A stretch of 64,000 nt of DNA. It comes from a virus. The stretch is from positions 1 to 64,000 of IMG/VR virus record IMGVR_UViG_3300031616_000003. The stretch is one strand, 5' to 3'. The translations under genes were made by a program, and so were the position numbers. Each line of letters begins with the position of its first letter. The stretch's first letter is position 1. Below, piece by piece: positions 2,219-56,484 of the stretch. Under the pieces are notes generated by a model that was given only the letters and a program-made list of their open reading frames with translations, did not search any database and had not been told where the DNA came from.

Positions 2219-2601
2219 CAGTCCTGTCCCTCCTGCGGGTCGCCCGCGGCGATGACGTCCTCGACCGGGGCCGGCTCGAGGTCGACCGCCGTCGGGGCGT
2301 CGTCGGGGTCCGGATCGTCCGGGTCGTCCTGCTCGACGCCGTCGCCGGGCAGCGCGATCACGTCGAGGCCCTTCTCCGCACTCGCAGTCAGGGCCCGGTC
2401 CACGTCCAGCGCCCGGGTGCCGTCGTCGTCGAGCAGCGACGGGTCGGCGGCGGTGTCCAGTACGTAGGCGCCGTCGGTGAGCCGGATGTAGTAGAGCCAG
2501 GCGGCGAAGCCCGGCCGGTCCACGGCGACGAAGCCGACGTCGCTGCGGGTGTTGATCGTCAGGCCGGCCATCGGGCCGCCGATACACACGCCCTTATGCA
2601 C
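2218..2601 (-). CDS. Conserved small actinophage protein upstream of endolysin
   Basis: 127 aa starting with GTG behind a GAGGAGG site. The N-terminal half has CIGGPMAGLTINTR and a YIRL strand pattern; the C-terminal half is strongly acidic and disordered (many Asp, Pro, Ala). It is coupled to the endolysin by overlapping stop and start codons. Similar short GGP-motif proteins are common near tail and lysis genes of actinophages, without known function. Confidence 0.7.
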   Translation of the reverse strand: MHKGVCIGGPMAGLTINTRSDVGFVAVDRPGFAAWLYYIRLTDGAYVLDTAADPSLLDDDGTRALDVDRALTASAEKGLDVIALPGDGVEQDDPDDPDPDDAPTAVDLEPAPVEDVIAAGDPQEGQD

Positions 2602-2628
2602 GTGCGCCTCCTCGAATCTGGGTGGGGT

Positions 2629-2650
2629 TGTCGCATTCGACTGCTAGGCT
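2629..2650 (+). promoter_or_regulatory. Phage promoter motif TGTCG-N11-TAGGCT
   Basis: TGTCG at 2629-2633 and TAGGCT at 2645-2650 are exactly 11 nt apart, with TG in the extended -10 position. The start codon of the downstream gene is 7 nt after the hexamer, so the transcript should be leaderless. The same arrangement recurs through the window. Confidence 0.7.
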
Positions 2651-2657
2651 GCTGACC

Positions 2658-2816
2658 ATGGATCAGGTGGTGTTCGCCTTAGTGCTGGTCTTCATCTGCG
2701 CAGTCACCGCCGCCTGGGCCCTGCTACTGCACTGGACCGGCCATTGGCTCAGGCCGCGCCTGGAGCGGTGGATCTGGCGCAAGCTGGGCGGGACGGGCGA
2801 ACCGCCTGCCCGCTAG
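2658..2816 (+). CDS. 52-aa membrane protein from a leaderless mRNA
   Basis: One hydrophobic helix (about residues 4-27) followed by an amphipathic Trp/Arg-rich helix (LRPRLERWIWRKL). There is no ribosome site; the ATG lies 7 nt behind a -10-like hexamer. It is an isolated plus-strand gene in the minus-strand late region and ends 4 nt inside its convergent neighbour. Expression separate from the late genes is likely, for example in lysogeny or exclusion, but function is unknown. Confidence 0.65.
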   Translation: MDQVVFALVLVFICAVTAAWALLLHWTGHWLRPRLERWIWRKLGGTGEPPAR

Positions 2817-3523
2817 CGCAGCGGGCGGCCCATGTGCGTCCACGGGTTGCCGCCGACGCCCTCGCCGGCCGGCAGGTTCAGCAGGATCGACCAGACGTGG
2901 CTCGCCTGCAGCACCGGGGTGACATCGACGGTGCGCGCGGTGGAACCCGCGGCCATGGCGGCGTTGGAGTCGAACCAGCCGAGGGTGAGCTTGACGTCGG
3001 TGGCCAGGCCGCCGGTCGCGATGTCCAGGCGCTGTGCGTCGGTGCCGGTCTCGACGCTCCAGTCCTTCGTGGTGGCGGTGCCGGGGTTCTCCCGGCCGGC
3101 GCCCACGGTGACCAGCCAGTCGCCGGCGTTGGCGCCGAGGCTGGGCGCGGCGATCGGCGCGTTCGCGACGTCGTGCGTCCAGACCGCTGAGGCGTTGGTG
3201 GAGACGGTCGCGTCGACCCCGGAGTAGGCCACGGCCGCGCCGAGGTTGCGGCCGGACGAGGACCAGGTCCAGGTGTAGGTGGCGCTGTTGTCCCCGCTGA
3301 CCGCGACCTTGCGGTACAGGTAGGTGGTCGTCGTGGTGCCGGGGGTGAAGCTGGCCACCATGGTCCAGCCGCCCGGCGCCGTCGGCGTGGGCGAGTTGCC
3401 CACGCTGGCGATCATGACGTAGATCATGTTGCCGACCGCGGTGGCCGTTGGCATCGGCACCGCGGTCGACGTTCCGGACGTGGAGTTCAGCACCGAGTTG
3501 CTGCCGACGTAGGCGATCGGCAT
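2813..3523 (-). CDS. Minor tail / receptor-side protein with lectin-like composition
   Basis: 236 aa rich in Thr, Ser, Gly, Val and aromatic residues with a predicted all-beta pattern (for example GGWTMVASFTPGTTTTTYLY and TYTWTWSSSGRNLGAAVAYSG). This resembles the beta-sandwich domains at the ends of phage tail fibres. It follows two other tail-fibre-like genes in the same orientation with 3-nt spacing, so it is probably part of the host-adhesion apparatus. No catalytic motif seen. Confidence 0.6.
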   Translation of the reverse strand: MPIAYVGSNSVLNSTSGTSTAVPMPTATAVGNMIYVMIASVGNSPTPTAPGGWTMVASFTPGTTTTTYLYRKVAVSGDNSATYTWTWSSSGRNLGAAVAYSGVDATVSTNASAVWTHDVANAPIAAPSLGANAGDWLVTVGAGRENPGTATTKDWSVETGTDAQRLDIATGGLATDVKLTLGWFDSNAAMAAGSTARTVDVTPVLQASHVWSILLNLPAGEGVGGNPWTHMGRPLR

Positions 3524-47934: not shown

Positions 47935-48603
47935 CTACTCGGACTTGACGTCCAGGCCGCTCTCCGCCACGGCGGCACCGCGGGTGGCGCCCTTGGCGTA
48001 CGCCGCGCTGGTCCGGCTCAGGCCCTCGTACGACGAGCTGACACCCTGGCCGGTGGCAGCGACGGCGATCGACGAGGAGAAGCCCATGCTGCCGGCCTGC
48101 TGCCAGGTGTCCGGGCCGGCGCCCATGAAGATCGCCGCCCACTTCCCGGCGTCCTCCCGGTCCTTGATCATCTTGGCGATGCCCTCGCGGGTGTACTCCC
48201 GGGAGGAGTTCTCCTGCCCGTCGGTCTGCGCGACCAGCAGTACCCGGTCGTCCGCGCCCAGCTGGAGCACCGCGGCCTCGAAGTCCGTGATCACCTTGCC
48301 GATCGCGTCCAGCAGCGCGGTGCCGCCGTTCGGGGTGTAGTTGCCGGTGTCGAGCCGCGGCGCGTCCTTCGGCTTCGCGCTGGTGCACAGCAGGGTGACC
48401 CCGGTGTTGAACAGCACGGAGGTCACCCGGTAGCGGATGCCGACGGCCTCGCGCGGGTCGCGCAGCTCGCCGCTGGCGACGTCGACATCCTTGCCCAGGT
48501 CGTCCAGGTAGGCGTTGTAGCCGCCGCGCACATCGTCGGCGAGCGCGTACATGCTGCCGCTGACGTCGGTGGCCAGCAGCACGTAGGTGGTGGGCTTGCT
48601 CAT
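47935..48603 (-). CDS. von Willebrand factor A (vWA) domain protein
   Basis: 222 aa, a single vWA domain. The MIDAS motif LATDVSGSM (about 10-18), the second motif with TGNYTPNGGTALLDAIG (the conserved Thr) and VLLVAQTDGQEN (the conserved Asp) are all present. vWA domains mediate protein-protein contacts through a bound metal. It is conserved in many actinophages next to replication genes; partner unknown. A second MIDAS domain is in the TROVE protein of this window. Confidence 0.85.
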   Translation of the reverse strand: MSKPTTYVLLATDVSGSMYALADDVRGGYNAYLDDLGKDVDVASGELRDPREAVGIRYRVTSVLFNTGVTLLCTSAKPKDAPRLDTGNYTPNGGTALLDAIGKVITDFEAAVLQLGADDRVLLVAQTDGQENSSREYTREGIAKMIKDREDAGKWAAIFMGAGPDTWQQAGSMGFSSSIAVAATGQGVSSSYEGLSRTSAAYAKGATRGAAVAESGLDVKSE

Positions 48604-48631
48604 CTCGGGTACTCCTCGGGTGGGTTGTTGT

Positions 48632-49024
48632 TCACCACCAGGACCAGCGGGCCATGTGGCGGTGCTGGGTGGTGGACGGGACGGTGTCGATCTCGCCGCT
48701 GCCGCGGTGTTCCTGGCGGACCCGGGTCAGCTCGTCACGCACTCGGCGCCGGTCGGGTCCGGTGTACTCCAGGCGCACGTACCAGGTGGGCACGCCGCGC
48801 GGTCCGTACGGGCGGTAGTAGTGGTCCCAGGTGGGCCGCCAGCAGCAGGCCGCGCCCTGGCGGGTGCGCCAGCTGTGGTTCACAGGCCGCTCGCGCTTGG
48901 GCTCGGCGGGCAGGTCGCATTCGCGCCGGCCGTTGCGCCAGAGCGCGAACTGGCAGCTGTGGTGATCGGGCTCCCAGTAGTGGGACAGCAGCCAGAACGG
49001 CAGGTCTTTGTCGGTGCGGGACAT
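48632..49024 (-). CDS. Hypothetical protein
   Basis: 130 aa, rich in Trp, Arg, His and Tyr: DLPFWLLSHYWEPDHHSCQFALW, CCWRPTWDHYYRPYGPRGVPTWYVRLEYTGPDRRRVRDEL. Several Cys/His could bind metal. Similar Trp-rich small proteins occur in actinophages without function. AGGAGG-like site upstream. Confidence 0.7.
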   Translation of the reverse strand: MSRTDKDLPFWLLSHYWEPDHHSCQFALWRNGRRECDLPAEPKRERPVNHSWRTRQGAACCWRPTWDHYYRPYGPRGVPTWYVRLEYTGPDRRRVRDELTRVRQEHRGSGEIDTVPSTTQHRHMARWSWW

Positions 49025-49094
49025 TTCGGCCTCCTCGCGGAGGACCACATGGTGTGGCCCTACTAAGGTGGCCGTGAGCTGCGCATGCGCATGA

Positions 49095-49409
49095 TCACTT
49101 CTCCTGTTCCCGCCGGTCTTCGATGATCAGCCGGACGATGCCGGCGCCGATCCGGATGGCCTGGGCGTTGGTCAGGCCGTACTTCGACACCAGTAGCCGG
49201 TACGCCGGCACCTCGCCCCGCTCGGCGACGATGATCCTGACCACGTCCGGGTCGGCGTGCAGTCGGATCCCGTGCTCCTCGCCGAGCACCGAGCCGTCGG
49301 CCGCCTCCACGCCGTGCGCCTGGGGGAACTCCACGAAGCCGTGGCCGGCCAGCTCGCCCATCAGCTGGTTGGTCTGCCGACTGGCCGGTGTGGGATCAAG
49401 GTCAGTCAT
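49095..49409 (-). CDS. 104-aa protein from a leaderless mRNA
   Basis: HGFVEFPQAHGVEAADGSVLGEEHGIRLHADPDVVRIIVAERGEVPAYRLLVSKYGLTNAQAIRIGAGI. A small alpha/beta protein; ATG at 49409 is 7 nt after TAGGCT with no ribosome site. No known family. Confidence 0.72.
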   Translation of the reverse strand: MTDLDPTPASRQTNQLMGELAGHGFVEFPQAHGVEAADGSVLGEEHGIRLHADPDVVRIIVAERGEVPAYRLLVSKYGLTNAQAIRIGAGIVRLIIEDRREQEK

Positions 49410-49416
49410 GGCAAAC

Positions 49417-49438
49417 AGCCTACTACTGGGCTTCGACA
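49417..49438 (-). promoter_or_regulatory. Promoter motif TGTCG-N11-TAGGCT
   Basis: Minus strand: TGTCG (49438-49434), 11 nt, TAGGCT (49422-49417), then 7 nt to the ATG. It overlaps the 3' end of the upstream gene (stop at 49423). Confidence 0.7.
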
Positions 49439-49691: not shown

Positions 49692-50117
49692 TCAGAAATT
49701 ACCCTCAGCGCACTGGAAAACGGTGAGGCCCAGCCGGCGCCACATCCGGACGACCTTGTCCCGGTCGTCGACCACGAACGCGACGTCGTAGTGCGGCAGG
49801 ACGCGTTCCTGGTACAGCTCGAGCTTGACGACGTCGTCCGGCCGGTTGTCCTTGTGCGGGCGCATGATCAGCTCTCGGAACCAGACCTGCTGCTCGCCCA
49901 GGCTCCGGAAGGTGGCCTCGTAGCAGACCTCGTCACGACCGGACATCACCACGATCTCCAGGTCGCCGGCCTTGATGATGCTGTGGGCCAGCTCGACCAC
50001 GGCCTCGTTCGGGGTGTCCTCGCCGACTCGGTGCCAGTCGTAGAACTTGCGCCCGCCGGTGTTCTTCATCAGGGTGCCGTCCACGTCGAACAGCACCACG
50101 CGGGGCTTAACGATCAC
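49692..50117 (-). CDS. HAD phosphatase of polynucleotide kinase 3'-phosphatase type
   Basis: 141 aa from GTG at 50117. VLFDVDGTLM (motif I, Asp11 and Asp13), IVVMSGRDEVC (motif II), K in the middle and VDDRDKVVRMWRRLGLTVFQCAEGNF match the phosphatase domain of T4 Pnkp and similar phage proteins. Expected reaction: removal of 3'-phosphates or 2',3'-cyclic phosphates from nucleic acid ends. No kinase domain is fused. With a 33-tRNA array nearby it could help repair cleaved tRNAs, which is inference. Confidence 0.8.
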   Translation of the reverse strand: MIVKPRVVLFDVDGTLMKNTGGRKFYDWHRVGEDTPNEAVVELAHSIIKAGDLEIVVMSGRDEVCYEATFRSLGEQQVWFRELIMRPHKDNRPDDVVKLELYQERVLPHYDVAFVVDDRDKVVRMWRRLGLTVFQCAEGNF

Positions 50118-50593: not shown

Positions 50594-50896
50594 TCAGACC
50601 GCGGCCGGCACGCTCTCGTAAGCCCGCCGGCGCGGCGCGGGCCGGGCCGCCGCTCGGCGATCACCGGGCAGCACGTAGTCGGCCAGCCGGGCGCCCGGGT
50701 CCAGCCACATCAGCAGCGAGCACAGGGTGTCCGCGTCGGGCCGAAACCCGTCGTTGAGCCGGGTGAACACGCTGGACGAGCCGGCGCCGATCTGCCGCGC
50801 GACCTCGCGGAACGAGATCTCGTCGGGGGTGCCGGCCCGGCGGGCCCGGTCGATGGCGCGGGCCAGTTTGACGGTGTCCAGCCGGTGGGTGGTCAC
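50594..50896 (-). CDS. XRE-like helix-turn-helix regulator
   Basis: 100 aa from GTG at 50896. KLARAIDRARRAGTPDEISFREVARQIGAGSSSVFTRLNDGFRPDADTLCSLLMWLD is a Cro/C1-type HTH (EVARQIGAGSSSVFTRL as the core). A basic C-terminal tail follows. Candidate repressor or regulator of the promoter set around it; no immunity function can be shown from sequence. Confidence 0.75.
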   Translation of the reverse strand: MTTHRLDTVKLARAIDRARRAGTPDEISFREVARQIGAGSSSVFTRLNDGFRPDADTLCSLLMWLDPGARLADYVLPGDRRAAARPAPRRRAYESVPAAV

Positions 50897-51465
50897 TGGG
50901 GGCGCTCCGTCCTGCCGGTCCGACCGGCGATCTCGGCCCGGGCGTACGCCGCCAGGACCTCGGTGGCCGGCTCGTCCTCCTCGAAGAAGTCGCCGTCGAT
51001 CGTGGCGCGGCAGCAGCCGTCGCAGTCGTGGTCGGCCAGCTCCGGGTGCAGCCGCACCTGCTGGTCGTCGGGGTCCGGGTGGTGCTGCTCGTGCGTACAC
51101 AGCCGGGTCATGATGCCGAGGTCCTCGCGCCAGCTCAGCGGCCAGTCGGCCTGCGGGTGGTCACTGGGCCAGTGCACCGGGCAGGTCGGCCGGCAGCGGG
51201 TGGGCCCGTGCACGCGCAGCGGTGTCGTGTCCCGCGGCGGGCCGACGAAGACGTAGTCGATCTGCGGCAGCGCCTCGTGCTCGGACCGGGTCGGCAGCCG
51301 GCCGTGCCGGCCCCACGCCTGGTACTCCTGCCACGTCATGCCCAGGTAGACGTGCAGCTGCACATGGCTGTCGCTGGCGGTCCAGACCTCCAGGAAGTCG
51401 TCAACCGCGGCGGCCGGGACCTCGCCGGCGAAGTAGAGGTCCAGGAACCTCAGGGGCTTGTTCAC
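50893..51465 (-). CDS. Hypothetical protein with N-terminal phage domain
   Basis: 190 aa from a GTG at 51465 with GAGAGAGG 5 nt upstream. FLDLYFAGEVPAAAVDDFLEVWTASDSHVQLHVYLGMTWQEYQAWGRHGRLP is a motif-rich start known from small phage and plasmid proteins. The C-terminal half has HDCDGCCRATIDGDFF. No function known. Confidence 0.65.
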   Translation of the reverse strand: MNKPLRFLDLYFAGEVPAAAVDDFLEVWTASDSHVQLHVYLGMTWQEYQAWGRHGRLPTRSEHEALPQIDYVFVGPPRDTTPLRVHGPTRCRPTCPVHWPSDHPQADWPLSWREDLGIMTRLCTHEQHHPDPDDQQVRLHPELADHDCDGCCRATIDGDFFEEDEPATEVLAAYARAEIAGRTGRTERPQ

Positions 51466-51476
51466 GTTGGCCTCTC

Positions 51477-51869
51477 TCACATCGCGCTCGTGATGCGCCA
51501 GTTGTGGCGCCCCGAGCGCAGGTACACCTCGTGCAGGATGGTCACCCGCAGGCGCAGGATCTGCCCCTGGCCCACCGCGGCCTCCTCACGCGGACCTGGC
51601 GCACCGTGCTGGTCCAGCAGGAACCGGCTGGTCATCGCCTCCTCGGTGGCACCGATGCAGGTGGGCTGGTGCGCGCCGTAGTCCAGCCAGGCCCAGTAGT
51701 CGTCCGGCCGCGGATCCTCGGCGGCCGCGAGCAGCACCCTCACCACCCGCTTGGCGGTGCGGTCCTGCTGAGCGAAGCCCAGCGGGCCGAAGTGCCGCAG
51801 CGGATGCGTGGAGCCCGGCTCGTCAGCGGAGGCGAACAGCTCCCACTCGGTCTCGAACAGGTCGCTCAC
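51477..51869 (-). CDS. Hypothetical protein
   Basis: 130 aa from GTG at 51869. DRTAKRVVRVLLAAAEDPRPDDYWAWLDYGAHQPTCIGATEEAMTSRFLLDQHGA and RLRVTILHEVYLRSGRHNWRIT. Mixed alpha/beta. The start overlaps the upstream stop. No recognised family. Confidence 0.65.
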   Translation of the reverse strand: MSDLFETEWELFASADEPGSTHPLRHFGPLGFAQQDRTAKRVVRVLLAAAEDPRPDDYWAWLDYGAHQPTCIGATEEAMTSRFLLDQHGAPGPREEAAVGQGQILRLRVTILHEVYLRSGRHNWRITSAM

Positions 51870-52210
51870 AGGACCACCTGCGCATCCGGGGCGCGCATGA
51901 CCCGGCCGTAGCGTTTGCAGTAGTCCTGGTGCAGCTCGCCCTCGCCGGCCGAGCAGGTAGCACAGCCGTACCGGTCGCTGGTGCGGTGCGGGAAGCGGTC
52001 CGGCGTGAAGCCGAGCTTCCAAGCCCTGGTGCCGAACTCCACGGTCGTGGCCGCGCTTAGGATCGCCGAGGCCGCGCGGGCGCCCAGATGATCCGGGTTG
52101 GCGATCGCGCCGCTGGCCATCAGGCTGTCCTCGTACTCCCGCTGGACCTCGGCGGCGATCCGCTCGTACAGGCTCACCATCTGCGGGTCGTTGTCCCAGT
52201 TGATGTCCAC
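51866..52210 (-). CDS. 114-aa first gene of the leftward block
   Basis: Helical start (QMVSLYERIAAEVQREYEDSLMASG) and CATCSAGEGELHQDYCKRYG with three Cys and one His. GTG at 52210 is preceded by GAGGAGG and a promoter motif. It is the first gene left of the divergent intergenic region. Confidence 0.75.
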   Translation of the reverse strand: MDINWDNDPQMVSLYERIAAEVQREYEDSLMASGAIANPDHLGARAASAILSAATTVEFGTRAWKLGFTPDRFPHRTSDRYGCATCSAGEGELHQDYCKRYGRVMRAPDAQVVL

Positions 52211-52238
52211 GTTCGTCCGGCCTCCTCAAGTTTGAGAC

Positions 52239-52261
52239 AGCGTACAACATCAGGTGCGACA
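52239..52261 (-). promoter_or_regulatory. Promoter motif TGTCG-N12-TACGCT, leftward
   Basis: Minus strand: TGTCG (52261-52257), 12 nt, TACGCT (52244-52239). It faces the leftward gene at 52210. One nt longer spacing than the other sites. Confidence 0.65.
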
Positions 52262-52300
52262 GACCGGCACGTGCCACGATCACGTGAAATCCCAGCATGC

Positions 52301-52529
52301 AATAAACGAAAACCCCCTGCATAGCTCTTGCCATACCCGGGGATTAAACGGACATCGCGCGATAGCAAGTGCCATCCGAGGGTTTTCTGTTTATTCGGCC
52401 GGACCGACGTTCGCGCAGGTCAGGCCCTACGCGAAAATTCCGGAAACTCGGCCATAGCAAGTGCCATACCCGGGGTTTCCGCAGAAAACCCCCGGATGGC
52501 ACTTGCTATGCAGGGGTTTTCGTTTAATT
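52301..52529. repeat. Four copies of a conserved element in the divergent intergenic region
   Basis: The core ATAGCAAGTGCCAT occurs at 52362-52375, 52454-52467 and, inverted, at 52496-52509; a variant ATAGCTCTTGCCAT is at 52321-52334. Each core is flanked by CCC(C) and GGGG runs next to A or T tracts. The last two copies make a palindrome over 52454-52509 with a 14-bp perfect outer stem. The region is clearly richer in A/T than its surroundings and lies between leftward and rightward genes. It may be a replication origin, partition site or operator array. The rest of 52211-52798 shows no gene. Confidence 0.8.
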
Positions 52530-52697
52530 CCTCACCAGGTGGGACTCTCGCGTACCCTGGGGCAAGGTCGGAGGCGTGCTAGCCCACCCCTCCCCACCCT
52601 GCGCTCCACGGGTCGTTGGTCCGTCCCTGTCGGCCGCGCGAGGCGAAGACCCGGGCGCCCTCCCCCTTCCAGTGCCGCCCGGGTCCACGCCCGGTGA

Positions 52698-52719
52698 TGT
52701 CACGACACACCTGTATGCT
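52698..52719 (+). promoter_or_regulatory. Promoter motif TGTCA-N11-TATGCT, rightward
   Basis: TGTCA 52698-52702, 11 nt, TATGCT 52714-52719. It starts a rightward transcript over the 42-aa gene and toward the tRNA array. Confidence 0.6.
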
Positions 52720-52798
52720 CCTTCGAGGAAAACCCTTGTGCGCCAGGCGTGGATCACCTACGGTTGGTGTCAAGCAGAACTAGACGAGGAGCCCCGAG

Positions 52799-52927
52799 AT
52801 GTATCGCTGGCACGCCACGAGCAACCCGCAGCACATGCTGCCGGGCTCGGCAGCCTGCGCCCTCGGGACAATCAACTTCGTCCGCGATGAGCAGTCCCGC
52901 AAGCCCGGAACGAGGCGGCGCCCCTAG
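52799..52927 (+). CDS. 42-aa hypothetical protein before the tRNA array
   Basis: MYRWHATSNPQHMLPGSAAC then ALGTINFVRDEQSRKPG and a basic end. GAGGAG lies 8 nt before the ATG and a promoter motif 80 nt upstream, and a strong terminator follows the stop. These signals support a short expressed gene; the protein has no known relatives that I recognise. Confidence 0.6.
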   Translation: MYRWHATSNPQHMLPGSAACALGTINFVRDEQSRKPGTRRRP

Positions 52928-52944
52928 CGCCACGGTCACACAGA

Positions 52945-52977
52945 CGCCGCCTCCGAACTCGGAGAGCGGCGTTTTTT
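52945..52977 (+). terminator. Rho-independent terminator
   Basis: CGCCGC-CTCCG stem (52945-52955) pairs with CGGAG-A-GCGGCG (52960-52971), with one bulge, and is followed by TTTTTT (52972-52977). It ends the transcript of the 42-aa gene and separates it from the tRNA array. Confidence 0.85.
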
Positions 52978-52996
52978 CGTAGGTCAAACAACTGAA

Positions 52997-53009
52997 TAGG
53001 CACCACCGA
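52997..53009 (+). promoter_or_regulatory. Likely promoter of the tRNA array, starting at the tRNA 5' end
   Basis: TAGGCA (52997-53002) is followed after exactly 7 nt by the first base of tRNA-Trp. The same 7-nt distance separates -10 hexamers from start codons of leaderless genes here, so transcription may begin at the mature tRNA 5' end. Confidence 0.5.
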
Positions 53010-53082
53010 GTGGGTGTAGTTCAACTGGTAGAGCAGCTGCCTCCAAAACAGCAAGTTGCAGGTTCGAGTCCTGTCGCCCGCG
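53010..53082 (+). tRNA. tRNA-Trp(CCA)
   Basis: Seven-bp acceptor stem, D-arm, anticodon loop CTCCAAA and T-arm with GGTTCGAGT. Pair 31-39 is C-A. First gene of the array. Confidence 0.9.
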
Positions 53083-53125
53083 CGTACGGTCCCCCGAGAA
53101 CCTTTGGGCATGGACATGGCACCAC

Positions 53126-53155
53126 TTGAGAACTGCACAGTGGAATGGCATGAGA
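53126..53155 (+). promoter_or_regulatory. rRNA-leader-like motif in the tRNA array
   Basis: TTGAGAACTGCACAGTGGA (53126-53144), then GGCATGAG, resembles the conserved TTGAGAACT-ACAGTGGA-GCA leader element in front of actinobacterial 16S rRNA genes, used for antitermination and processing. Recognised from memory. It lies between the first and second tRNA genes. Confidence 0.55.
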
Positions 53156-53156
53156 T

Positions 53157-53180
53157 CGCCCGGCGGTACGCCGCCGGGCG
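53157..53180 (+). other. Strong hairpin with TACG loop
   Basis: A perfect 10-bp stem (53157-53166 with 53171-53180) around a TACG tetraloop, directly after the rRNA-leader-like motif and 4 nt before tRNA-Ala. No T-run; more likely a processing or antitermination structure than a terminator. Confidence 0.6.
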
Positions 53181-53184
53181 CAAT

Positions 53185-53257
53185 GGGGCCTTGGCGCAGC
53201 TGGTAGCGCGTCGGTATGGCATACCGAAGGTCGTGGGTTCGAATCCCGCAGGCTCCA
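53185..53257 (+). tRNA. tRNA-Ala(GGC)
   Basis: Complete cloverleaf; anticodon loop ATGGCAT closed by TCGGT/ACCGA; T-loop TTCGAAT. Confidence 0.95.
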
Positions 53258-53262
53258 CTCAC

Positions 53263-53335
53263 GCTCGTGTAGCTCAGTTGGGAGAGCGCTGCTCTGAAAA
53301 GGCAGAGGCCGCCGGATCGATACCGGCCGCGAGCA
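53263..53335 (+). tRNA. tRNA-Phe(GAA)
   Basis: Complete cloverleaf; anticodon loop CTGAAAA. The T-loop reads ATCGATA, so position 54 is A instead of the usual T. Confidence 0.92.
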
Positions 53336-53385
53336 CGTCGTCGCCGGTCTGGTCAGGGCGCCATCCCTGCCGGCGGCGGCTCCAT

Positions 53386-53460
53386 GGGCCACTGGAGCTG
53401 TTGGCAAAGCTCATCTCGTTCTCAGCGAGAAGATCGTCGGTTCGAGCCCGACGTGGCCTA
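53386..53460 (+). tRNA. tRNA-Glu(CTC)
   Basis: Acceptor GGGCCAC/GTGGCCT, anticodon stem TCTCG/CGAGA around TTCTCAG, T-loop TTCGAGC. Confidence 0.93.
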
Positions 53461-53469
53461 CGCAACAAT

Positions 53470-53540
53470 GCGGACGTAGCTCAATGGCAGAGCTTCTGTC
53501 TTCCAAACAGACCACGCGAGTTCGATTCTCGTCGTCCGCT
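53470..53540 (+). tRNA. tRNA-Gly(TCC)
   Basis: Acceptor GCGGACG/CGTCCGC; anticodon loop CTTCCAA; T-loop TTCGATT. Confidence 0.95.
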
Positions 53541-53547
53541 CTTTCGC

Positions 53548-53624
53548 TCCGGGTTGGGCTGTTGGCAGGCTCGACGGGGTTTTGGTCCCCGGTACAGACG
53601 CGGGTTCGAATCCTGCACCCGGAA
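53548..53624 (+). tRNA. tRNA-Gln(TTG)
   Basis: Acceptor TCCGGGT/ACCCGGA; anticodon stem CGGGG/CCCCG around TTTTGGT. The D-stem has wobble pairs and the variable region is 8 nt, so the fold is less regular than its neighbours. Confidence 0.85.
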
Positions 53625-53629
53625 CAAAT

Positions 53630-53702
53630 GCCGCCGAAGCTCAGCTGGTTGAGCACCCGCATGGTAAGCGGGAGGCTGAGAGTTCGAATCTCTCCGGTGG
53701 CT
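53630..53702 (+). tRNA. tRNA-Thr(GGT)
   Basis: Complete cloverleaf; anticodon loop ATGGTAA closed by CCCGC/GCGGG; T-loop TTCGAAT. Confidence 0.95.
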
Positions 53703-53714
53703 CGTAAATGCAAT

Positions 53715-53787
53715 GCGGCAGTAGCTCAGTAGGTAGAGCGCGACGTTGCCAACGTCGAGGTGGCGGGTTCGAGACCCGTCTGTCGCT
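53715..53787 (+). tRNA. tRNA-Gly(GCC)
   Basis: Acceptor GCGGCAG/CTGTCGC; anticodon loop TTGCCAA; T-loop TTCGAGA. Confidence 0.95.
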
Positions 53788-53830
53788 CTCGCCCCGGTAT
53801 CTTTTGATCAAAGAAAAGGAGGTGATCCCG

Positions 53831-54271
53831 GTGAGCGACGTCCTGGTCATCAACGCCGACCTGGGGCCCCTGCACCGGGTGCCTCTGAAACACGCGATCC
53901 GGATGCTGGTCCGCGAGGTCGCCGAGATCCACGACTTTGAGCCCGACAAGCTGATCGGCATCTTCCCGATGCCGCGGGTGGTCCGGCTCATCCGGTACGT
54001 CTACACGAAGTGGCGACACACCAGCGGTCCCGGTTGGTCCCGGGCCGGCGTGCTCAAGCGTGACGGCGACCGCTGCGGCTACTGCCGCGGCGCGGCCACC
54101 ACGGTCGACCACATCCAGCCGCGCTCGCGCAGCGGCCGCAACAGCTGGAAGAACACCGTGGCGAGCTGCTACCGGTGTAACCAGGCCAAGGCCAACCGCA
54201 CGCCGGCCGAGGCCGGCATGAGGCTGCTGGTGACCACCGCAGCCCCCACGTGGGCTTCTCTCGCCCACTGA
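53831..54271 (+). CDS. HNH endonuclease inside the tRNA array
   Basis: 146 aa from GTG at 53831 behind a perfect AAGGAGGTGAT site. N-terminal VLVINADLGPLHRVPLKHAIRMLVREVAEIH, then CGYCRGAATTVDHIQPRSRSGRNSWKNTVASCYRCNQAKANRTPAEAG: two CxxC pairs frame the HNH metal site (DHI, N, and a final N/K). Such genes can be homing endonucleases or DNA-maintenance nucleases. It interrupts the array between tRNA-Gly and tRNA-Gln, which fits invasion of the array by a mobile HNH gene. Confidence 0.88.
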   Translation: MSDVLVINADLGPLHRVPLKHAIRMLVREVAEIHDFEPDKLIGIFPMPRVVRLIRYVYTKWRHTSGPGWSRAGVLKRDGDRCGYCRGAATTVDHIQPRSRSGRNSWKNTVASCYRCNQAKANRTPAEAGMRLLVTTAAPTWASLAH

Positions 54272-54273
54272 TC

Positions 54274-54348
54274 GCCAGGCCGACGCCCTGTTGCCGCGGG
54301 GCGCGAGTTGAAGGCGCGGAACAAGCACGCCCGCGACGTCGGCCTGGC
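54274..54348 (+). ncRNA. Unclassified structured RNA A (75 nt) in the tRNA array
   Basis: The ends form a perfect 12-bp stem (54274-54285 with 54337-54348). Inside, GCGC (54301-54304) pairs with GCGC (54314-54317), and GCGG with CCGC can form a further hairpin. There is no GTTCRA T-loop and no anticodon arm of standard form. It is tRNA-sized and lies 5 nt before tRNA-Gln. Confidence 0.5.
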
Positions 54349-54353
54349 CCCAT

Positions 54354-54426
54354 TCCCCGCTGGTGTAACTGGCAGCACGCCTGATTCTGGATCAGGAAGC
54401 CTTGGGTTCGAATCCTGGGTGGGGAG
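54354..54426 (+). tRNA. tRNA-Gln(CTG)
   Basis: Acceptor TCCCCGC/GTGGGGA; anticodon loop TTCTGGA closed by CCTGA/TCAGG; T-loop TTCGAAT. Confidence 0.94.
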
Positions 54427-54482
54427 CGTTGACCCTGCGCTGTCATGCTGCCAGCCCGCGAGAGCCGGGCCAGGGTCCACAT

Positions 54483-54614
54483 GCCGGGGTAGTTCAGCGG
54501 AAGAACACCGCCGCCTCTCGCCTCAGCGTGGTCTGGCCAGACGCGCACGGGGCCCGGGTGTACAACCGGGAGGTTCGCAGGCGGAGGTCGCAGGTTCGAA
54601 TCCTGTCTCTGGCC
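54483..54614 (+). tRNA. tRNA with a 60-nt insertion in the anticodon loop, possibly Arg(TCG)
   Basis: The two ends match over all stems: acceptor GCCGGGG/CTCTGGC, D-stem GTTC/GAAC, anticodon stem CCGCC/GGCGG and a T-arm with TTCGAAT. About 60 nt of self-complementary sequence lie between the anticodon stem strands. If removed just after the 5' strand, the loop is GTTCGCA, giving anticodon TCG, though C at 37 is unusual. Too short for a group I intron. Identity and removal are uncertain. Confidence 0.6.
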
Positions 54615-54618
54615 CAAT

Positions 54619-54691
54619 GCCGATGCAGCTCAGCAGGTAGAGCACGCCACTCGTAATGGCGAGGGCTCCGGTTCGAGTCCGGACTTCGGCT
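54619..54691 (+). tRNA. tRNA-Thr(CGT)
   Basis: Anticodon loop CTCGTAA closed by CGCCA/TGGCG; T-loop TTCGAGT. One T-T mismatch in the acceptor stem. Confidence 0.92.
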
Positions 54692-54696
54692 CTCAT

Positions 54697-54780
54697 GCGC
54701 TCGTGGTGGAAATGGTAGTCACGCCGGTTTCAGAAACCGGTCTCCGCGAGGAGGTGGGAGTTCGACTCTCCCCGGGCGCA
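54697..54780 (+). tRNA. tRNA-Leu(CAG)
   Basis: Class II tRNA with a variable arm; anticodon loop TTCAGAA closed by CCGGT/ACCGG; acceptor GCGCTCG/CGGGCGC. Confidence 0.94.
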
Positions 54781-54782
54781 CT

Positions 54783-54878
54783 GGACGATCACCGCGAAGG
54801 CAGGCAGGTAGCACCCAGCCTGGCCGGAGCCCTTTAGCACCGGAGCCCGGGTAGCGCCCGGGGGAGCGGTGATCGTCC
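54783..54878 (+). ncRNA. Unclassified cloverleaf-like RNA B (96 nt)
   Basis: Perfect 13-bp terminal stem (54783-54795 with 54866-54878). Three internal hairpins: CAGGC/GCCTG (54801-54805, 54818-54822), CCGG/CCGG (54824-54827, 54840-54843) and CCCGGG/CCCGGG (54846-54851, 54857-54862). TAGC(A/G)CC recurs in each arm (near 54809, 54835 and 54852). No T-loop or anticodon arm. It lies 2 nt after tRNA-Leu and 5 nt before tRNA-Ala. Confidence 0.6.
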
Positions 54879-54883
54879 GCAAT

Positions 54884-54956
54884 GGGGTTATAGCTCAATT
54901 GGTAGAGCACTCGTTTCGCATGCGAGAGGTTCGGGGTTCGACTCCCCGTGGCTCCA
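54884..54956 (+). tRNA. tRNA-Ala(CGC)
   Basis: Complete cloverleaf; anticodon loop TTCGCAT; T-loop TTCGACT. Confidence 0.95.
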
Positions 54957-54959
54957 CGT

Positions 54960-55024
54960 GGTTCGCGTTACCTTTCGGAGGGGCCCGGGACGCCGGGGGT
55001 GAGGTTTGAAGCCCACCGCGAACC
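54960..55024 (+). ncRNA. Unclassified cloverleaf-like RNA C (65 nt)
   Basis: Perfect 8-bp terminal stem GGTTCGCG/CGCGAACC (54960-54967 with 55017-55024). Inner hairpins are CCT/AGG around TTCGG, CCCGG/CCGGG around GACG, and GGTG/CACC. A weak T-loop resemblance (GGTTTGAAGCC) exists but the arm does not pair as in tRNA. Lies 3 nt after tRNA-Ala. Confidence 0.5.
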
Positions 55025-55030
55025 CCCAAT

Positions 55031-55104
55031 GTCGCCGCAGAGCAGATGGAGTGCTCACCTCCCTGTCAAGGAGGAGATCGCGGGTTCGAGTCCCGTCGGT
55101 GACG
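55031..55104 (+). tRNA. tRNA-Asp(GTC)
   Basis: Anticodon loop CTGTCAA closed by CCTCC/GGAGG; D-stem GAGC/GCTC; T-loop TTCGAGT. Confidence 0.95.
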
Positions 55105-55109
55105 CGCAA

Positions 55110-55195
55110 GGAAGGGTGGCATGAGCGGCCTATGGCACTGCCCTGCTAAGGCAGATCGGGTAACACCGACGAGGGTTCGAATCCCTCTCCTTCCT
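55110..55195 (+). tRNA. tRNA-Ser(GCT)
   Basis: Class II with variable arm; anticodon loop CTGCTAA closed by CTGCC/GGCAG; acceptor GGAAGGG/TCCTTCC. Confidence 0.94.
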
Positions 55196-55199
55196 CCAG

Positions 55200-55273
55200 G
55201 TCGTCGTAGCTCAGTCGGTTAGAGCGCTTCGCTGATAACGAAGAGGTGGGTGGTTCGATTCCACTCGGCGACA
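55200..55273 (+). tRNA. tRNA-Ile(GAT)
   Basis: Acceptor GTCGTCG/CGGCGAC; anticodon loop CTGATAA; T-loop TTCGATT. Confidence 0.95.
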
Positions 55274-55283
55274 CGCAATTCAT

Positions 55284-55356
55284 GCCCTTGTAGCTCAGTG
55301 GATAGAGCGCCGCACTACGGATGCGGAAGTCGGAGGTTCGAATCCTCTCGGGGGCA
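55284..55356 (+). tRNA. tRNA-Arg(ACG)
   Basis: Anticodon loop CTACGGA closed by CCGCA/TGCGG; A34 is expected to be edited to inosine by host TadA. Confidence 0.95.
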
Positions 55357-55361
55357 CGTAA

Positions 55362-55435
55362 CGGGACGTAGCTCAGTTTGGTAGAGCACACGGCTGGGGG
55401 CCGTGCGGCCGGGCGTTCAAATCGCCCCGTCCCGA
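55362..55435 (+). tRNA. tRNA-Pro(GGG)
   Basis: Acceptor CGGGACG/CGTCCCG; anticodon loop CTGGGGG; T-loop TTCAAAT. Confidence 0.95.
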
Positions 55436-55447
55436 CGCAAGGAACAT

Positions 55448-55521
55448 CTGGGTATGGCTCAGGTTGGTAGAGCGCTGGTTTCGGGAATCAGAGGACGGGG
55501 GTTCAAATCCCTCTACCCAGA
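55448..55521 (+). tRNA. tRNA-Pro(CGG)
   Basis: Acceptor CTGGGTA/TACCCAG; anticodon loop TTCGGGA closed by CTGGT/ATCAG; T-loop TTCAAAT. Confidence 0.95.
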
Positions 55522-55525
55522 CTCT

Positions 55526-55610
55526 GGAGGGTACCGCGGCACAGGGCCGCAACAGGTCTCGAAAACCTGTGGGTCGGGAAACCGGCGGCGTTCGACCCGT
55601 CTACCTTCCG
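55526..55610 (+). tRNA. tRNA-Ser(CGA)
   Basis: Class II; anticodon loop CTCGAAA closed by CAGGT/ACCTG; CCA is encoded directly after the discriminator base (55611-55613). Confidence 0.93.
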
Positions 55611-55614
55611 CCAA

Positions 55615-55686
55615 GCCCCCGTAGCTCAGAGGAAGAGCAACCGACTCTTAATCGGTGGGCCGGGATATCGTAATTCCCCGGGGGCA
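55615..55686 (+). tRNA. tRNA-Lys(CTT) with degenerate T-arm
   Basis: Acceptor GCCCCCG/CGGGGGC and anticodon loop CTCTTAA are standard, but the T-arm reads GGGAT-ATCGTAA-TTCCC: pair 53-61 is T-T and the loop lacks T54. Probably still foldable, but it departs from the rule. Confidence 0.85.
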
Positions 55687-55690
55687 CTTC

Positions 55691-55762
55691 GCGGTGCGTG
55701 CGCTGGACGCGCTTCTCGATCTTCTAAATCGTGTGTGCCGGGTTCGATTCCCGGGTGCCGCA
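55691..55762 (+). tRNA. tRNA-Arg(TCT)
   Basis: Anticodon loop CTTCTAA; acceptor GCGGTGC/GTGCCGC; T-loop TTCGATT. D-loop is short and one anticodon-stem pair (T-T) is missing. Confidence 0.88.
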
Positions 55763-55778
55763 CCGTTACGATCTGCTC

Positions 55779-56033
55779 GTGACCGATCCTCAGGTGGCCG
55801 ACCATCTGGCCAAGCTGGCCAATATCCTGCTCGACCTGGACCGCTGCAAGCACGGCCGGCACAGTATCGACCCGTGCTTCAGCTGTCCCGACGGGATGTC
55901 GGCTGGCAACCCGCACCTGAAGCCAGGCGAGATCATCGGCTACGGGCTCAGCGGGGTGCCGATCCGGATGCCGGATCGCAGCCGCGGCGAGCACCCGTAC
56001 GACGTCGAGTCCTGGCGCACCATGCCCTCGTAG
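55779..56033 (+). CDS. 84-aa Zn-binding-like protein between tRNA genes
   Basis: DPQVADHLAKLANILLDLDRCKHGRHSIDPCFSCPDGMSAGNPHLKPGEIIGYGLSGVPIRM: a helical start and C..H..H..C..C residues that suit zinc. GTG at 55779 lies 6 nt after TACGAT with no ribosome site, so it may be leaderless. Its last codons and stop lie inside the next tRNA gene (overlap 56024-56033). Confidence 0.65.
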   Translation: MTDPQVADHLAKLANILLDLDRCKHGRHSIDPCFSCPDGMSAGNPHLKPGEIIGYGLSGVPIRMPDRSRGEHPYDVESWRTMPS

Positions 56034-56096
56034 CTCAGGGGATAGAGCAGTCGCCTCCTAAGTGAAAGGTCGGCGGTTCGATTCCGCCCGAGGGCA
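56024..56096 (+). tRNA. tRNA-Arg(CCT)
   Basis: Acceptor GCCCTCG/CGAGGGC; anticodon loop CTCCTAA; one mismatch in the anticodon stem. CCA is encoded after the discriminator (56097-56099). Confidence 0.92.
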
Positions 56097-56100
56097 CCAA

Positions 56101-56172
56101 GGGCCGCTAGCTCAGTGGCAGAGCTGCCGACTTTTAATCGGAATGTCCAGAGTTCGATTCTCTGGCGGCCTA
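56101..56172 (+). tRNA. tRNA-Lys(TTT)
   Basis: Anticodon loop CTTTTAA; acceptor GGGCCGC/GCGGCCT; T-loop TTCGATT. Confidence 0.93.
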
Positions 56173-56176
56173 CCTC

Positions 56177-56250
56177 CTCCGCGTAGCTCAGCCTGGCAGA
56201 GCATCTGTTCGACACACAGAAGGTCGGGGGTTCAATTCCCTCCGCGGAGA
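56177..56250 (+). tRNA. tRNA-Val(GAC) with C at position 33
   Basis: Acceptor CTCCGCG/CGCGGAG; anticodon stem TCTGT/ACAGA closes TCGACAC, so the nearly universal U33 is C. CCA is encoded (56251-56253). Confidence 0.85.
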
Positions 56251-56254
56251 CCAT

Positions 56255-56329
56255 GGGGTCGTGGACAAATAGCGCAAAGTCGCCGTCCTTTCAAGGCGGA
56301 ATCTGCGGGTTCAAATCCCGTCGGCCCTA
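56255..56329 (+). tRNA. tRNA-Glu(TTC)
   Basis: Anticodon loop CTTTCAA closed by CCGTC/GGCGG; short D-stem GAC/GTC; T-loop TTCAAAT. Confidence 0.9.
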
Positions 56330-56334
56330 CTCAT

Positions 56335-56405
56335 TCCCTCGTCGTTCAATGGCAGGACAGCGGACTGTTAATCCGCCGACGCTGGTTCGACCCCAGCCGA
56401 GGGAG
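56335..56405 (+). tRNA. tRNA-Asn(GTT)
   Basis: Acceptor TCCCTCG/CGAGGGA; anticodon loop CTGTTAA closed by GCGGA/TCCGC; T-loop TTCGACC. Confidence 0.95.
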
Positions 56406-56410
56406 CGCAA

Positions 56411-56482
56411 GCCCGCATAGCTCATCGGGAGAGCGCCGCTTTCACACAGCGGAGGCGCCAGGTTCGACACCTGGTGTGGGCA
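56411..56482 (+). tRNA. tRNA-Val(CAC)
   Basis: Anticodon loop TTCACAC closed by CCGCT/AGCGG; acceptor GCCCGCA/TGTGGGC. Confidence 0.95.
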
Positions 56483-56484
56483 CT

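What the first reader, a model, noticed from the sequence alone, without database searches (positions are those of the whole stretch)
52301..52529. Four-copy palindromic element in the divergent intergenic region, possible origin or operator array
The core ATAGCAAGTGCCAT is kept in three copies and varied in a fourth. Copies are framed by C/A and G/T runs, and two inverted copies form a 56-bp palindrome. The region is A/T-rich compared with its GC-rich surroundings and separates leftward from rightward transcription, a typical place for a replication origin, centromere or repressor array.
Basis: partly seen in the sequence, partly recalled or inferred. Interest (0 to 1): 0.8.

Follow-up and report, generated by a model that had tools for sequence, protein, structure and literature searches.

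The report
Palindromic array between divergent phage operons
A 227-bp stretch between two outward-facing gene sets of a soil-type actinobacterial phage carries four mirror-symmetric copies of a palindromic DNA motif, most likely a local protein-binding control region whose outer copies also look like transcription stop signals; it does not have the marks of a replication origin or centromere.

Summary
The repeats are real. Three exact and one variant copy of ATAGCAAGTGCCAT lie at 52321, 52362, 52454 and 52496, in a 227-bp cassette (52303-52529) between a leftward gene (51866-52210) and a rightward tRNA/Ro cluster. Nothing similar occurs elsewhere in the 71-kb record, in 50,697 phages, or (two specific patterns) in 2.9 million viral contigs, apart from one close relative, which keeps all four copies at identical spacing (41/92/42 bp). 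The layout is mirror-symmetric about ~52414.7, with a fifth dyad in the middle. Substitutions between the two genomes preserve the dyads more than chance would (P 0.006). The cassette has no -10-like TANNNT on either strand (5.1 expected, P 0.01); such sites flank it, pointing outward. The outer copies are also strong, outward-facing intrinsic-terminator-like hairpins.

Best reading: a local operator/insulator region for the two divergent units, with a Cro-like (XRE-type) protein of the leftward operon as candidate binder. Main rival: a bidirectional terminator cluster. An origin is disfavoured (no unwinding element, no skew turn, no initiator or helicase found), and so is a ParB centromere (no ParA/ParB found). 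The binder is unproven. In passing: a YrlA Y-RNA-like gene directly upstream of the phage's Ro gene.

The parts
52303..52529 (.). whole cassette: four imperfect palindromes plus a central dyad, mirror-symmetric about ~52414.7; conserved in one relative without indels
52303..52352 (-). copy 1 (core 52321-52334, oriented core ATGGCAAGAGCTAT on - strand); also a strong leftward terminator-like hairpin (-20.3 kcal/mol, tail TTTTCGTTTATT)
52345..52394 (+). copy 2 (core 52362-52375, exact); weak hairpin; outer arms TAAACGGA / TCTGTTTA
52397..52426 (.). central dyad GGCCGGACC...GGTCAGGCC (one mismatch here, perfect 9-bp arms in the relative)
52439..52482 (+). copy 3 (core 52454-52467, exact), arms GGAAACTCGG / CCGGGGTTTCC
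52482..52530 (-). copy 4 (core 52496-52509, exact on - strand), arms GAAAACCCC / GGGGTTTTC; also a strong rightward terminator-like hairpin (-23.0 kcal/mol, tail TTTTCGTTTAAT)
   Evidence: compensatory change 52492/52513 in the relative
52239..52244 (-). -10-like TACGCT of the presumed leftward promoter, in the best conserved non-coding stretch 52211-52302 (1 substitution in 89)
   Evidence: prediction
52714..52719 (+). -10-like TATGCT of the presumed rightward promoter (alternatives 52553 TACCCT, 52759 TACGGT)
   Evidence: prediction
51866..52210 (-). gene A, first gene of the leftward operon, 114 aa, no family; found only in the relative contig
50594..50896 (-). gene D, 100 aa, XRE/Cro-like helix-turn-helix candidate regulator, 99% identical in the relative
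53010..57110 (+). rightward array of 30 tRNA genes (with an HNH gene)

Best explanation
The cassette is a local, mirror-symmetric operator/insulator region of a temperate actinobacteriophage. Dimers of a phage (or host) regulator bind the 14-bp near-palindromic cores ATRGCAAGWGCYAT. Within each pair the cores lie about four helical turns apart (41 and 42 bp), so bound dimers would sit on one face of the DNA and could bridge the two halves. This would control the two outward promoters that flank the cassette: the leftward early-type operon starting with gene A, and the rightward small-ORF/tRNA/Ro unit. The outer copies additionally fold, as RNA, into outward-facing intrinsic terminators that would keep stray transcription from crossing between the units. 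Shown: copies, symmetry, spacing, conservation in a relative, dyad-preserving substitutions, absence of -10 elements inside. Inferred: the promoters, protein binding, and the binder's identity (gene D, an XRE-like protein of the leftward operon, is the leading candidate).
For: Four cores agree at ATRGCAAGWGCYAT, including the inner AAGW, while the arms differ between copies; a pure hairpin would not need a fixed loop. Spacing 41/92/42 is symmetric and identical in the relative, with no indel in 227 bp although both flanks have indels. Watson-Crick dyad pairs go 58 to 60 between the genomes versus 53.8 for random substitutions, P 0.006, with one full compensatory change, 52492/52513; both core substitutions hit the one degenerate symmetric position, 3/12. 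No TANNNT in the cassette (5.1 expected, P 0.0095), while -10-like sites lie outside it, pointing outward. No other copies in the record, so a local rather than global site. Gene D is 99% identical in the relative (gene A 90%); its low-confidence model matches mostly XRE/cI/Cro proteins (ImmR, P22 c2, HipB), best E 0.46. Functional parallel: mycobacteriophage BPs regulates two divergent promoters through 12-bp palindromic operators (PMC4557955).
Against: No binding data. Cores are not clearly better conserved between the two genomes than the rest of the cassette (2 of 56 versus 9 of 171 positions changed). Gene D fails Pfam and PHROGs thresholds, and its model is low confidence (pLDDT 55). The outer copies are good terminators, which an operator need not be. 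Promoters are predicted only from -10-like hexamers, without good -35 boxes.
Confidence: 0.45

Rival explanations
1. A bidirectional terminator/insulator cluster working at RNA level: tandem palindromic intrinsic terminators, partly made by inverted duplication, that stop antisense or read-through transcription in both directions between the two divergent units. No protein is needed.
For: Copies 1(-) and 4(+) are among about seven good non-coding hairpin-plus-T-tail sites in 71 kb, face outward, and share the tail TTTTCGTTTA. The architecture AAACCC-ATRGC-N4-GCYAT-GGGTTT occurs elsewhere in viral contigs as single terminator-like hairpins; phages Hammy and LuckySocke have similar intergenic hairpins. 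The minus strand folds at -133.8 kcal/mol, z -10.5.
Against: Copy 2 is a weak hairpin (about -10 kcal/mol) and copy 3 lacks a proper T-tail. The conserved inner AAGW and fixed spacing are not needed for terminators. No gene is known to be transcribed into the cassette from either side; predicted flanking promoters point away from it.
Confidence: 0.32
2. A phage replication origin with palindromic iterons bound by an initiator.
For: Repeated palindromes in a non-coding, lower-GC divergent region, in a genome with its own DnaE polymerase.
Against: No AT-rich unwinding element (best 40 bp -56.4, rank 864 of 71,039), in contrast to the iteron array in an initiator-like gene in L138. No GC-skew turn near 52.4 kb. 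No initiator recognised near it, no DnaB found. The record may be incomplete.
Confidence: 0.1
3. A centromere (parS) for plasmid-like maintenance of the prophage.
For: Local cluster of palindromes.
Against: No ParA or ParB match in the record while the same searches ring in control genomes. A tyrosine integrase is present.
Confidence: 0.03
4. A miniature mobile element with terminal inverted repeats TAAACGAAAACCCC.
For: Perfect 14-bp inverted ends 52303-52316 / 52513-52526.
Against: No second copy in the record, in phages, plasmids or viral contigs outside the relative, which has it at the same place. No target-site duplication noticed.
Confidence: 0.04

Closest known systems
Mycobacteriophage BPs 33-34 intergenic operators (PMC4557955)
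   Same: Palindromic sites in a region with two divergent promoters; a full operator is two half sites; both core and variant palindromes
   Different: BPs core is CGACATATGTCG, sites flank repressor and early genes and recur at five places in the genome; here the core differs, is found at one place only, and the downstream units are a small-gene operon and a tRNA/Ro cluster
Phage phi29 p4 sites between promoters A2c and A3 (PMC3100819)
   Same: Four imperfect inverted repeats with A-tracts in a control region between promoters, each an independent binding site, arranged as two pairs
   Different: Consensus CTTTTT-N15-AAAATG; no p4 homologue was sought or found here
Stoperators of cluster A mycobacteriophages (PMC6550527)
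   Same: Short repressor sites in an actinobacteriophage
   Different: Stoperators are asymmetric 13-bp sites scattered over the genome; these are near-palindromic and confined to one place
Bidirectional intrinsic terminators of phages (AAAACCCC-loop-GGGGTTTT)
   Same: Outer copies have this stem, A-tract and U-tail; same architecture in viral contigs L129, L130, L132, L133
   Different: Four copies in one divergent region with a conserved core; two copies are poor terminators
Iteron array inside an initiator-like gene (L138)
   Same: Closely spaced palindromic repeats
   Different: L138 repeats lie in an initiator-like gene next to a DnaC-like gene and an AT-rich stretch; none of this is present here

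Membership tests
Phage operator array at divergent promoters | Repeated near-palindromic sites in the intergenic region of divergent units | tested here: met
Phage operator array at divergent promoters | Promoters overlapping or next to the sites | tested here: inconclusive
   Only -10-like hexamers, outward-facing, outside the cassette; no consensus sigma-70 site
Phage operator array at divergent promoters | A cognate DNA-binding protein encoded nearby | tested here: inconclusive
   Gene D looks XRE-like by weak fold and sequence matches; below family thresholds
Phage operator array at divergent promoters | Specific binding and regulation | not testable with these tools
   needs gel shift and reporters
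Intrinsic terminator | G+C-rich hairpin followed by U-tract | tested here: inconclusive
   Met by copies 1(-) and 4(+); not by copy 2 (weak stem) or copy 3 (weak tail)
Intrinsic terminator | Lies at the end of a transcription unit | tested here: not met
   The region is divergent; predicted genes on both sides read away from it
Iteron-type phage origin | AT-rich unwinding element next to the repeats | tested here: not met
Iteron-type phage origin | Initiator/helicase-loader gene linked | tested here: not met
   No such match in the leftward-operon proteins scanned; no DnaB in the record; not all ORFs were scanned and the record may be incomplete
parS centromere | ParA/ParB present | tested here: not met
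Cluster A stoperators | Asymmetric sites dispersed over the genome | tested here: not met
   PMC6550527

The most novel reading that the evidence does not exclude
The same sequence works twice: as DNA, a mirror-symmetric operator bridged by a phage regulator; as RNA, paired outward terminators. A protein-controlled bidirectional insulator would then decide whether a phage's tRNA/Ro/Y-RNA cluster is expressed separately from its leftward operon.
Probability: 0.15. Interest if true: 0.55.

Novelty: new member of a known kind. Interest (0 to 1): 0.36.

Why it matters
How phages with large tRNA arrays time the expression of those arrays is, to my knowledge (not checked against the literature here), little studied. 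This region is a compact, testable candidate for the control element of such an array in a temperate actinobacteriophage that also carries a Ro protein and a Y-RNA-like gene. If the operator reading is right it gives a new operator sequence and a candidate regulator; if the terminator reading is right it is an unusually symmetric insulator between phage operons.

Tried and rejected
Origin: no unwinding element, skew turn, or recognised initiator. parS: no ParA/ParB. Mobile element: no second copy anywhere. Known RNA family or Ro ligand in the cassette: no Rfam match above chance; a Y-RNA-like gene lies elsewhere, at 57279-57382. Self-contained small-RNA gene: no -10-like element inside. Gene A and gene D gave no relatives in genome contigs or phages. 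The gene D homologue in L138 has no such cassette. The weak Budski match to the cassette centre (E 0.8) lies in a repressor/HTH intergenic region, but the matched bases vary in the relative, so it was not relied on. Structure models of genes D and A have low confidence.

Full report
OBSERVATION. The stated repeats exist. ATAGCAAGTGCCAT is exact at 52362-52375 and 52454-52467 on the + strand and at 52496-52509 on the - strand; a fourth copy at 52321-52334 differs at three places. Read on the strand that shares the inner AAG, the four copies are ATGGCAAGAGCTAT (copy 1, -), ATAGCAAGTGCCAT (copies 2 and 3, +) and ATAGCAAGTGCCAT (copy 4, -), consensus ATRGCAAGWGCYAT. The orientation series - + + - and the centre spacing 41/92/42 bp make the array mirror-symmetric about 52414.7; a further dyad, GGCCGGACC...GGTCAGGCC (52397-52426), lies close to that centre. 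The '56-bp palindrome' is 52454-52509, 46 of 56 positions symmetric. Apart from a GC-rich simple repeat at 69.4 kb, no other 14-mer in non-coding DNA of the 71-kb record recurs three times within 300 bp, and the record holds no further core copy within two mismatches.

CONTEXT. The window is 64 kb of a 71,079-bp IMG/VR virus record. Terminase, portal, protease, capsid and tape-measure genes read leftward, as does a DnaE-type polymerase. A 30-tRNA array, a TROVE/Ro gene and a tyrosine integrase read rightward. The nearest named phage by terminase is the Streptomyces phage Samy (54% aa identity). The cassette separates gene A (51866-52210, leftward, no known family) from the rightward tRNA side.

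RELATIVE. One contig, IMGVR_UViG_3300049002_000030, carries the region. In the cassette, 11 of 227 positions differ and there is no indel, while both flanks have indels; the leftward flank 52211-52302 differs at 1 of 89 positions. All four copies keep their spacing. The relative lacks blocks matching window positions 47991-49434, 49715-50084, 50942-51438 and 52690-54119, including the first tRNAs, but keeps gene A, gene D and the cassette. Counting Watson-Crick pairs symmetric about the five dyads, the window has 58 and the relative 60; 11 random substitutions give 53.8 on average, and 0.6% of trials reach 60. One change is fully compensatory (52492 C to G with 52513 G to C), and both core changes fall on the one symmetric position where the core is degenerate. 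So the dyads look maintained by selection. This does not say whether as DNA or RNA.

WHAT IT IS NOT. It does not look like an iteron origin. The least stable 40 bp of the cassette rank 864th of 71,039 windows, there is no skew turn, and no helicase match was found. A useful contrast came from L138, found through a gene D homologue: six palindromic repeats inside an initiator-like gene beside a DnaC-like gene, followed by a very unstable AT-rich stretch. The initiator and DnaC labels there are read from the sequence, not from a family search. ParA and ParB were not found. No second copy supports a mobile element. Rfam has nothing above chance in the cassette.

OPERATOR OR TERMINATOR. Two readings survive. 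For terminators: copy 1 on the - strand and copy 4 on the + strand fold at -20.3 and -23.0 kcal/mol and end in TTTTCGTTTA, and a scan of the record puts them among about seven good non-coding terminator-like sites; they face outward. The same stem architecture found in other viral contigs appears as a single terminator-like hairpin. Against this as the whole story: copy 2 has a weak stem, copy 3 a poor tail, the inner loop sequence is conserved, and no predicted gene is transcribed into the cassette. For operators: conserved 14-bp cores with variable arms, near-integral helical spacing within pairs, strict locality, and the complete absence of TANNNT inside this low-GC stretch (5.1 expected, P 0.0095) while TACGCT at 52244 (-) and TACCCT, TATGCT and TACGGT at 52553, 52714 and 52759 (+) flank it pointing outward. 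These promoter assignments are weak, since no consensus -35 accompanies them. A combination, operator in DNA and insulator in RNA, is not excluded.

CANDIDATE BINDER. Gene D (50594-50896, leftward operon) is 99% identical in the relative. It escapes Pfam and PHROGs, but a low-confidence model (pLDDT 55) finds mostly XRE/cI/Cro-type proteins, best E 0.46, and the best PDB sequence match is a probable transcriptional regulator at E 0.78. That makes it a candidate only.

COMPARISON. Functionally closest are the BPs operators between divergent promoters (PMC4557955) and the four p4 inverted repeats of phi29 (PMC3100819). Cluster A stoperators differ in being asymmetric and dispersed (PMC6550527; PMC4557955). 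RNA-based prophage origins of actinobacteriophages exist (PMC7157519), but those lie beside parABS in phages that lack an integration cassette, unlike here. Verdict: a real, local, symmetric control region of a known general kind with a new sequence; mechanism plausible but not demonstrated.

Noticed in passing
57279-57382: YrlA Y-RNA-like gene (Rfam RF02553, full length, 48.1 bits, below the gathering score of 69, E 5.9e-10) directly upstream of the phage TROVE/Ro gene 57452-59056: a probable phage-encoded Ro/Y-RNA pair at the end of the tRNA array.
   Followed up: partly
56940-57013: Selenocysteine-tRNA-like sequence, 46.7 bits against a gathering score of 47.
   Followed up: no
54483-54614: tRNA-like sequence of 132 nt (44.3 bits) missed by ARAGORN, apparently with a long insert.
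   Followed up: no
52941-52977: Strong rightward terminator-like hairpin (-24.7 kcal/mol) between a small ORF (52799-52927) and the first tRNA: possible attenuator of the tRNA array.
   Followed up: no
L138:1748-1911: Six palindromic ~20-bp repeats inside an initiator-like gene (1450-2319) next to a DnaC-like gene (2319-3011), followed by an unstable AT-rich stretch: a lambda-O-like origin layout in another actinobacterial-type viral contig.
   Followed up: partly
L124:10894-11079 (record positions 70894-71079): The last ~185 bases of the record are far more AT-rich (GC about 0.28-0.33) than the rest: possible chimeric or host-derived end.
   Followed up: no
L126: The relative lacks several clean blocks present in the window (including 52690-54119 with the first tRNAs) and its far end reads like host-type DNA: it may be a decaying prophage.
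   Followed up: partly
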